Below, piece by piece: positions 34,114 through 49,953 of a stretch of 64,000 nucleotides of DNA (the stretch's first letter is position 1; each line of letters begins with the position of its first letter). The DNA lies in contig JAQGDQ010000125.1 of NCBI GenBank assembly GCA_030141605.1, positions 434,001 through 498,000 of the forward strand. Reading direction: 5' to 3'. Made by a program: the position numbers and the translations under genes. The notes beneath the pieces are model-generated. The model had not been told where the DNA came from. It saw only the letters and a list, made by a program, of their open reading frames with translations, and did not search any database. This DNA comes from Tubiluchus corallicola. Taxonomy: Eukaryota > Priapulida > Priapulimorpha > Priapulimorphida > Tubiluchidae.

Positions 34114-37100
34114 ATGTCCAAAATGGCGGTGTTAGCAGAATTTGAAAGAGCACAAGTTCTATCTTCCAGTGATAAAACAGCCGCAATACAGATTTATCAT
34201 GGGATAGGTAATACTCTCTTATGGAAGTTTGTCCGTTGTTTGTAAGATTTCAATGTCTTGTAATTGTTGCAAGCACTTAAAAGATCTTAATGTGAGACTC
34301 TTCTTTGGTTCACGATGCCGGTAGCATTAAAATTTGCTGACCTCATGCTCGTGATACTGAATTGTCTTGTTTATTTTGCAAACGCATTATGATGTAGTAG
34401 CCGTAAGCCACGTTATTTTATTTTGAGAAAAATGTGATCAACTGACCATATGTATAAATGGTGCTCATTTTTGTAATTTAGCCTGCGACAAAAGGGTTAG
34501 AGGCATTGAACATGAAGTTGAGTTTTACACTATTTGATACAAAAAATATGTGATGGCATAAGTAGGCTATTGGAAAAAGTTATACTGTAATTAAATCTTC
34601 GTGATGATCAAAAATTGCCACTGGTGTTCACTTATAGTTTTTTTAGTAATAGTTAATACATTGCAAGAATTTATAAATTTTGATATTTAATTTTTAGTGG
34701 CAGTTATATATTGGATAGTGGAAAGTTCTGTTAAATGATGTTAAATCAAGAACAATCTAACTAAACTACAGCCTAGTCGTTATTTTGCTAATAATTTACG
34801 AAGTACTTGGTATAATATATCATTACTGTTTCCAGCCTGAATGGACTCTATTACAGAGAATTAAAAACCTCCACCTGACTATACACCACATTGTAATAGT
34901 ATAGAGTTTCAGTGTTTAACCACATCTACAACATCATGAGTACAATTAAGTAGCAACCATGGGCAAAGCTATTAGCTTTGCTCTGATTTGTCATGTAAGA
35001 CATTACTGTGGGTGATAGCGAAATAGCACATTCTCTTCAAAATGTTTGCATGTTTTGCCTGAGGAGATTTTAAAATTCAAAGTCGGTATCAGCGAGATTT
35101 TTTCCTAAAATACAACTCAACTCCAACTCCTGAAACTGACTTCACATCCATGGTATTAGTAAACTGGTGAGACCTGTTTTAATTTGAAAGAAATATGGTG
35201 AAAAAATGGCTAATGAAATAGACTGAACCAAAAGCATTCTTCAGTCGTTTCTTGTAGACGCAGCTTGTTTGGTTCATCTCTTTGGGTTTGGTCTCTTTCT
35301 TTGTCTTTCATCTTTTCACATTTGAAGCAATTTGTCATGATTTTTTTTTATAAAAATTTACTGTTTAAGTTCTACTGTTGCTTTATCATCAAGACTGATT
35401 TAGTGATTGTTTATTTCGATATATCTTTGAGAAACTTCCAGAAAGCTTTACGCAGTCCTTGGGGCAAAACATTTCTGTTTTAGTGAAAAGAGACACGAAG
35501 GCAGAAGATGATGACTTGCTTAAAGCAAAGGAGCAAAGCATTATTGAGCTAGGGAAACTGTTAGCAAACACTGGTCAGTCTGGAGGTAATTATAACTGTT
35601 TTATTTTCTGTTAAAAATCAAAACTTTTATCACGATTCACTTTAAATTTTCAAATTATCTCCATTACTTTTTTTCTCTATCACTGTGTGGGACAATCTAA
35701 CAAGCCCTGCTTTTTGATTCCCACAACACATTTACCTTTGTGTATAAGTGAATAGTGCTTGAGGCTTTTCTGTGCAGTATTTTTTATTTGTATTATATCC
35801 ATTGTAGGCCCTTTCACTAGATATTGTATATGTAACCTGTAAATGTGTATGGTGAAGTAAATGACTTATGACTAACAACTTTTTAAAGGAAACTTGGATG
35901 ATGTTCTCTGATGATGCAAAGAATAATATATAATGCATCCATGGCTTTGGGTCAGAAACAGCTAAAATTTTGAATATTGAAAATGTAGAAAAAAAGCTAA
36001 AACTGACATGAATTTCGTGGGACACACTTTGTACGACTTGCAAAAAAATATTCAATTTTTTTGTTTGTGTGAGCCGATAATTGATGTCAAGCATATTGCT
36101 CTATCACTCCACCGACATTGTGACATTATAAGCATGCTCAGAGGAATTCGGGACGTCAGCTCACACTGAATAACTGTCTTTAGTAAACAACATGACAACT
36201 AATGTCTAATCAGCACATAAACTGATTGTGCTTTCTCATGCACAAAAATTTGCAGAGCAGCAGTTACGCTAAGTCCTTAATTAATGACGTAAATTATTTC
36301 CTGCAAAAAGTGTCGCAAAATGAAACAATATAGTTGCTTACAGGAGAAAAATCAATGATGCTTGGCTCATAAATTAAACACTTTGTACATTGCTAACAGT
36401 TCTACATTACGTATTTGTTTAATTAAAAAGATTAGTTAAAATTAAACATTGCTAAGCGGGGTGTCGATAACTGAGGACTTAATGTAGTTTTACACCATAT
36501 TAAAATTTCCAGTGGCTAAAAAAGACTACAATTTAACCAGAAAGTAGTTTCGAAGTTTCAAAGACCTACAAAATGCAGAGACGTCCAAAATCCAAATCGG
36601 GCATTATAAAAAAGAATTAATTAAGCTTTGCTTTAAGGCAAATGGGCAACAAAAATATTTGCTTTTGCCTTTGTACGAACGAACATATACCTGCGACGTA
36701 TTTTTTACATTTAGCTAATGATGTGGCCGTCTGCAACTTTTTTACCACTTTTTGTGTTTTTCCAACGGCTTCCAGGTTGTAGAAATGAAATAAATTTGAT
36801 TGTTTCATTCCGTAAAAGATCCTTATATCGACTGCCCGAGTTACTTAAGTCCCAATGGCATCTTTTAAGTGTAAAGTTAACCATTTCAGGATACTAATTA
36901 TCACATAGATGTATAATATTAATTTTGACTGGTTTGACGGATTTGTTGACTAGCTTCTTCCAATTCCTATAATGTTACTTAGACTTGGGTGCTCAGGCTG
37001 TAATTTTTACATGTAGTTTAACCTTGAAGATTTGAATCATTTATACCTGTTAACTCGAGCTTCAATCTGAAGTTATAAATAACGTTGTCACCTCTGTTCA

Positions 37101-49062: not shown

Positions 49063-49953
49063 ATGGGCACTGTACTGTCCATATCTCCGACTCCTCCGAG
49101 GAAGCCACTCTATGAAGATTGTTCTCTTAATAATTTCAACTACGAAGCCCTCAACAATGCCAAAAATAGCAAGGAGAAAAACTCGTTAAAGAAGCACTCG
49201 CTGTTCATCAACACGCTAAGCTGGAAGAAATTTGGTGTCAGCAACAAGAAAACAAAGGAGAAGTCCCAATCGTCCAATAGCTTGTTTAGAGGTTACCAAC
49301 TAAATCAAATTGGGGTTAAAGTGGACAACTTAAACAACGTGGAGAACAACAAAAATCTGAATAATGTGGCCAAGTCGGTCTCGTGCTACAATCTCAAATA
49401 CCCAGTTAGCAATATAAATGAATTACCACGATATGACGATCAGAAGAACAATAACGTTGTCGACAAGACTTCAAAGCCTGCCAGAAAGACGGTCATCCAA
49501 GCTAGCACTTCCGAATTATTGCGGTGTTTGGGTGACTACCTGTGTCACAAGTGTTTTAGATTAAAAGACTTTGAATCCGGCGATGCTGTGATGTGGCTGA
49601 GAAGCGTTGACCGCTCCTTGCTATTGCAAGGATGGCAGGACATTGCCTTCATAAATCCTGCTAACGTGGTCTTCATCTACATGATTGTCCGCGAACTTGT
49701 AAACGATTCTATAGAAAGTGAACATGAACTACAAGCGGTGGTGTTAACATGTCTATACCTTTCCTATTCTTACATGGGGAACGAGATTAGCTATCCATTG
49801 AAGCCGTTTCTTGTAGAGGAAAGTAGGGAAAAATTCTGGGATCGGTGTCTACGAATTATTAATGATTTAAGTGGCAACATGTTACGAATTAACGCTGATC
49901 CAAGTTATTTTACTGAAGTTTTTAGTGAATTGAAATCATGCAGCAGTGGGTAA
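49063..49953 (+). CDS. CDK5R1: CDK5 activator 1 (p35), single-exon gene
   Basis: This is an intronless frame of 296 residues, against 307 in human. ATG 49,063 was chosen over the in-frame TTG at 49,042 because it gives MGTVLSISP, the family's N-terminus with Gly2 for myristoylation. A Lys-rich stretch follows (about residues 38-66, [14 protein letters not shown]), then an Asn/Lys-rich low-complexity linker (about 85-140). The cyclin-box-like CDK5-binding domain spans about 144-293 and includes [65 protein letters not shown] and [17 protein letters not shown]. p35 binds and activates CDK5 at membranes. The catalytic-activation domain is nearly identical to that of vertebrates, while the linker carrying the vertebrate calpain site is diverged. 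It is the direct downstream neighbour of PSMD11. Confidence 0.97.

What the first reader, a model, noticed from the sequence alone, without database searches (positions are those of the whole stretch)
34114..49953. PSMD11 to CDK5R1 order and orientation matches human 17q11.2
PSMD11 is followed directly by single-exon CDK5R1 on the same strand with no recognised gene between. In human the two genes are also immediate neighbours in the same order and strand at 17q11.2. Persistence of a housekeeping-tissue-specific gene pair in an unrelated invertebrate-type genome suggests either very slow rearrangement or a regulatory constraint, such as CDK5R1 enhancers inside PSMD11 introns (a genomic regulatory block).
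Basis: partly seen in the sequence, partly recalled or inferred. Interest (0 to 1): 0.65.

Follow-up and report, generated by a model that had tools for sequence, protein, structure and literature searches.

The report
Ancient PSMD11–CDK5R1 gene neighbours in protostome
In this invertebrate (protostome) genome a proteasome gene is followed directly by the gene for the neuronal CDK5 activator p35, the same order and strand as in humans, which is most likely a gene pairing kept since the common ancestor; why it was kept is not shown.

Summary
An intact 10-exon PSMD11 (34114-42991, +; 424 aa, about 69% identical to human) is followed 6.07 kb later by an intact single-exon CDK5R1/p35 gene (49063-49953, +; 49% identical, only CDK5-activator hit in the genome). 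No Pfam family is found between them. The genome carries an exact bantam microRNA, so it is a protostome, and the human comparison spans the protostome-deuterostome split. The human outer neighbours are not on this 572-kb contig: ZNF207, C17orf75 and the MYO1 gene lie on three other contigs. Local order is LMTK(+), CCZ1(-), PSMD11(+), CDK5R1(+), cytohesin(+). Chance adjacency with the same order and strands is expected for only about 2 gene pairs per genome comparison, so inheritance from the bilaterian ancestor is favoured. No third species could be searched. The regulatory-block reading is untested: PSMD11 introns are short and conserved non-coding elements could not be sought. A further lead is that, from memory, LMTK, CCZ1 and cytohesin genes also cluster in human (LMTK3-CYTH2 at 19q13.33; CCZ1 and CYTH3 at 7p22.1), so the ancestral block may be larger, and LMTK proteins bind p35. 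Verdict: a likely new member of the known class of ancient microsyntenic pairs.

The parts
34114..42991 (+). PSMD11 (RPN6, 26S proteasome lid subunit), 10 coding exons: 34114-34207, 35484-35585, 37744-37868, 38054-38183, 39134-39245, 39599-39829, 40508-40652, 41396-41497, 42576-42663, 42849-42991
   Evidence: tblastn with recalled human protein; splice-consistent intact 424-aa model, 293/422 identical; RPN6_N only here in the genome
42992..49062 (.). intergenic gap, 6.07 kb, no recognised gene
   Evidence: no Pfam in six frames, no Rfam, only weak coding signals
43632..44077 (.). dispersed repeat (transposon-like) inside the gap
   Evidence: about 40 listed matches at 91-95% identity across the genome, a lower bound
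49063..49953 (+). CDK5R1 (p35), single coding exon, 296 aa, N-terminal MGTVLSISP conserved
   Evidence: only CDK5_activator match in genome
21691..31601 (-). CCZ1 (Rab7 exchange factor subunit), immediate left neighbour, head-to-head with PSMD11
   Evidence: Intu_longin_1/2/3 matches; exon-by-exon match to recalled human CCZ1
10752..18796 (+). LMTK/AATK-type lemur kinase gene (kinase exons 10.8-13.9 kb, probable tail exons 16.8-18.8 kb; may begin further left)
   Evidence: best solved structure LMTK3 157 bits, next insulin receptor 117
57276..57353 (+). first detected coding exon of cytohesin (CYTH); gene continues to about G000:C70:507,870
   Evidence: tblastn with recalled human CYTH1, exons in window and L010

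Best explanation
PSMD11 and CDK5R1 were already tandem neighbours in the last common ancestor of protostomes and deuterostomes, and both this genome and human inherited that. The pair stayed together while the genes around it changed in at least one lineage. Shown: intact genes, adjacency, order and strand, protostome identity, different outer neighbours. Inferred: common inheritance. Most likely reason for retention, not shown: a short interval that rarely breaks, with a moderate chance that p35 regulatory DNA in or beyond PSMD11 also penalises breaks.
For: Intact genes in the stated order and strand. No recognised gene between them. Exact 23/23 bantam sequence, protostome-specific by established knowledge. 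Simulated chance: about 2-2.4 strictly conserved adjacent pairs in roughly 8000 orthologues even if all linkage groups are conserved, 0.2 with none. A published survey found far more ancestral blocks than in shuffled genomes (256 versus 45-56 for the bilaterian ancestor; PMC8851819). Outer human neighbours on other contigs: ZNF207 C2149, MYO1 C2144, C17orf75 C1024.
Against: No third lineage could be checked: prokaryote and virus collections hold no relative, and no held paper mentions CDK5R1 with microsynteny. From memory the genes are not adjacent in Drosophila, so the pair is not universal. Vertebrates retain few ancestral blocks (84% of bilaterian novelties lost, PMC8851819), which lowers the prior for any given pair.
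Confidence: 0.8

Rival explanations
1. Genomic regulatory block: enhancers of CDK5R1 lie in PSMD11 introns or beyond it, and breaking the pair would cut p35 off from them. This is a cause for retention and is compatible with common inheritance.
For: Pair of a housekeeping and a neuronal gene; both lie in one human TAD; enhancer signatures are enriched in ancient microsyntenic pairs in a sponge (43 of 60 pairs, PMC5429095); the pair outlived its neighbours.
Against: PSMD11 introns are short (longest about 2.2 kb); the gap tolerates a repeat insertion; no conserved non-coding element or chromatin data available; deleting MYO1D super-enhancer elements affected neither gene, although this did not test PSMD11 introns; [quoted passage not shown]
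Confidence: 0.3
2. The pair is a remnant of a larger ancestral block LMTK-CCZ1-PSMD11-CDK5R1-CYTH, split between human chromosomes after the vertebrate genome duplications. This extends the best explanation and does not exclude it.
For: All five genes lie consecutively here. From memory, human LMTK3-CYTH2 are neighbours at 19q13.33, CCZ1 and CYTH3 lie close at 7p22.1, AATK and CYTH1 both lie at 17q25.3. PMC6679542 draws CYTH2 and LMTK3 in one syntenic region of vertebrates.
Against: Human positions of LMTK, CCZ1 and CYTH were not verified with a tool; a second cytohesin gene exists on another contig next to an ATF4-like gene, so it is unclear which cytohesin locus is ancestral; the pair could have been inserted into an LMTK-CCZ1-CYTH neighbourhood.
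Confidence: 0.45
3. Coincidence: the two genes became neighbours independently in this lineage and in vertebrates.
Against: That is far below the number of ancestral associations reported in the literature; order and orientation also match.
Confidence: 0.1

Closest known systems
PSMD11-CDK5R1 gene pair at human 17q11.2
   Same: Immediate neighbours, PSMD11 first, same strand, no gene between (human side from established knowledge)
   Different: Human flanks are ZNF207/C17orf75 and MYO1D/TMEM98; here CCZ1/LMTK and cytohesin/Crumbs-like. ZNF207, C17orf75 and the MYO1 gene of this genome lie on other contigs
Ancient metazoan microsyntenic pairs (Irimia et al. 2012; e.g. Isl2-Scaper)
   Same: Two functionally unrelated genes adjacent across the protostome-deuterostome divide, one housekeeping and one tissue-regulated
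   Different: CDK5R1 is not a transcription factor or classic developmental regulator; PSMD11 introns are short; membership of the published list could not be checked
Genomic regulatory blocks (GRBs)
   Same: Housekeeping 'bystander' next to a gene with restricted expression
   Different: No CNE array, enhancer or contact shown; no expanded bystander introns

Membership tests
Ancient bilaterian microsyntenic pair | Genes adjacent in a protostome and in a deuterostome | tested here: met
   Adjacent here; protostome by bantam; human adjacency by established knowledge, with a shared TAD in the literature
Ancient bilaterian microsyntenic pair | Adjacency in several independent lineages, excluding convergence | not testable with these tools
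   No other animal genomes held; scans of prokaryote and viral collections gave nothing
Ancient bilaterian microsyntenic pair | More than chance expectation | tested here: met
   About 2 such pairs expected per genome comparison; a given pair is improbable, though chance is not excluded
Genomic regulatory block | Conserved non-coding elements or enhancers of the target in bystander introns or gap | not testable with these tools
   No relatives or chromatin data
Genomic regulatory block | Long introns or gene-poor surroundings of bystander | tested here: not met
   PSMD11 introns 0.16-2.2 kb; five genes in about 63 kb, not a gene desert
Uniformly slow-rearranging segment | Outer neighbours also shared with human 17q11.2 | tested here: not met
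   ZNF207, C17orf75 and MYO1 on other contigs; local neighbours differ; same-chromosome linkage cannot be excluded in a contig assembly

The most novel reading that the evidence does not exclude
LMTK, CCZ1, PSMD11, CDK5R1 and cytohesin form a five-gene ancestral bilaterian block whose members other than PSMD11 act in endosomal trafficking. LMTK proteins bind p35 and are phosphorylated by Cdk5/p35. Shared regulation may have held them together, and the block was split between ohnologous human regions.
Probability: 0.12. Interest if true: 0.55.

Novelty: new member of a known kind. Interest (0 to 1): 0.32.

Why it matters
If confirmed in other phyla, this adds a proteasome-neuronal gene pair to the list of gene neighbourhoods kept for more than half a billion years. 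It would also make a concrete, testable place to look for deep regulatory constraint on p35. The wider LMTK-CCZ1-PSMD11-CDK5R1-CYTH arrangement would tie several scattered human regions to one ancestral segment and would put a kinase and its known binding partner in one neighbourhood.

Tried and rejected
COX1 search for species identity: no match in the assembly. Scans of bacterial and viral contig collections for stray animal contigs carrying CDK5R1: none. Literature on PSMD11/CDK5R1 synteny: none held; the Irimia 2012 paper is not held. Searches for papers stating the human positions of CYTH2/CYTH3/CCZ1: none. The idea that the whole 17q11.2 neighbourhood is conserved was rejected. The idea that C1935 is an unmerged second haplotype of this locus was rejected: its cytohesin is 72-85% identical in coding DNA, and no matches to the recalled PSMD11, CDK5R1 or CCZ1 were found upstream. 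LMTK was not probed there. A frame-1-only Pfam scan of the LMTK region returned nothing, so exon pieces were searched instead.

Full report
Observation. The window is G000:C70:434001-498000 of a 343.5-Mb assembly in 2344 contigs; C70 is 572,134 bases long. Joining the exons at GT/AG sites gives one uninterrupted 424-residue protein, 34114-42991 on the + strand, 293 of 422 residues identical to the probe. The RPN6_N family occurs in the genome only here. CDK5R1 is a single open frame from ATG 49063 to stop 49953 on the + strand, with PF03261 at E=1.4e-106 and human p25/p35 as the only solved-structure matches. It is the only CDK5-activator match in the whole assembly.

The gap. Between the stop of PSMD11 and the ATG of CDK5R1 lie 6.07 kb. 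Six-frame Pfam scans of 42992-57270 find only CDK5R1, Rfam finds nothing in the window, and codon-usage signals are weak. About 445 bases (43632-44077) belong to a dispersed repeat with about 40 listed matches at 91-95% identity, a lower bound. A tandem duplicate near 46.8-47.0 kb also matches sequence on another contig. So the gap has taken up mobile or repeated DNA without loss of the pairing.

What kind of genome. A bantam microRNA precursor is present, with all 23 bases of the mature sequence that I searched for. Its score of 55.9 bits is under the family's gathering score of 61, but the mature sequence is exact. Bantam is protostome-specific by established knowledge. Comparison with human therefore spans the protostome-deuterostome split.

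Neighbours. Further left is a lemur-type kinase gene on the + strand: its best solved structure is LMTK3 at 157 bits, against 117 for the insulin receptor. Left of that, on the - strand, exons read as the helicase HELLS (recognised by eye, not searched), and beyond it lie a BAG-domain gene with a BAG3-like WW exon and a GRIP-domain gene. To the right of CDK5R1, cytohesin begins with an exon at 57276-57353 and continues to about C70:507,870 on the + strand, 59-92% identical per exon to recalled human CYTH1. A Crumbs-like EGF/laminin-G gene follows. The human outer neighbours of the pair are elsewhere in this assembly: ZNF207 on C2149, the MYO1 tail domain on C2144, C17orf75 on C1024. Because the assembly is in contigs, linkage on the same chromosome is not excluded.

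Chance. I simulated two genomes with 7200-8000 shared genes. If all shared genes stay within 20-24 conserved linkage groups but are otherwise shuffled, about 1.9-2.4 pairs keep strict adjacency, order and strands; with no linkage conserved, about 0.2. A survey of 49 animal genomes infers 256 new microsyntenic blocks in the bilaterian ancestor against 45-56 in shuffled genomes, well retained in ambulacrarians and lophotrochozoans and largely lost in vertebrates (PMC8851819; that survey defines a block as three or more genes, so it is only a guide for pairs). I therefore favour inheritance at about 0.8, but the decisive check in other phyla could not be run: the collections here hold no other animal genome, and no held paper treats CDK5R1 with microsynteny.

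Why kept. The regulatory-block reading is possible but not supported by anything measured here. PSMD11 introns run from about 0.16 to 2.2 kb, whereas the first intron of cytohesin is about 10 kb. In human cells PSMD11 and CDK5R1 share a TAD with MYO1D, TMEM98 and SPACA3, and deleting elements of the MYO1D super-enhancer changed the last three genes but not PSMD11 or CDK5R1 (PMC5838163). In the little skate the Psmd11 locus is listed as a candidate rearrangement (PMC10115646), so the region is not untouchable. For the opposite view, ancient gene pairs in a sponge are enriched in enhancer signatures, 43 of 60 pairs (PMC5429095), and this pair has outlived its neighbours. I put about 0.3 on regulatory constraint as the main cause.

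A possible larger block. From memory, and not verified by a tool, human LMTK3 and CYTH2 are neighbours at 19q13.33, CCZ1 and CYTH3 lie close together at 7p22.1, and AATK and CYTH1 both lie at 17q25.3. PMC6679542 draws CYTH2 and LMTK3 together in one vertebrate syntenic region. The five consecutive genes here may thus reflect one ancestral segment later divided among duplicated vertebrate regions, or the pair may have been inserted into an LMTK-CCZ1-CYTH segment. A second cytohesin gene on C1935, next to an ATF4-like bZIP gene, complicates which cytohesin site is ancestral. It is notable that LMTK1 (AATYK1) binds p35 and is phosphorylated by Cdk5/p35, with which it colocalises on endosomes (PMC2857886), and that LMTK2 binds p35 (PMC6505310). 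Whether this has anything to do with gene order is unknown.

Verdict. It belongs to a known class, ancient microsyntenic pairs; no paper that can be searched here singles this pair out, but the main published list could not be opened.

Noticed in passing
21691-31601 (-) and 34114 (+): CCZ1 and PSMD11 are head-to-head, about 2.5 kb between their first detected coding exons, so they may share a promoter region.
   Followed up: partly
G000:C1935:229000-237100 (L024, L025): A second cytohesin gene with the same exon layout, 72-85% identical in coding DNA to the C70 copy, downstream of an ATF4-like bZIP gene; human ATF4/CYTH4 and ATF5/CYTH2 are also linked (from memory).
   Followed up: partly
43632-44077: Young dispersed repeat of about 445 bases, about 40 listed genomic matches at 91-95% identity.
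   Followed up: partly
5459-6359: Open frames that look by eye like a LINE-type ORF fragment between HELLS and LMTK.
   Followed up: no
G000:C70:524800-552000 (L012-L015): Crumbs-like EGF/laminin-G gene right of cytohesin, followed by a PLAT-domain gene on the - strand.
   Followed up: no
12069-12371: The LMTK kinase catalytic loop reads CNDIALRTC where recalled human LMTK2 reads HSDLALRNC, so the usual catalytic-loop histidine and asparagine are replaced; it may be catalytically altered.
   Followed up: no
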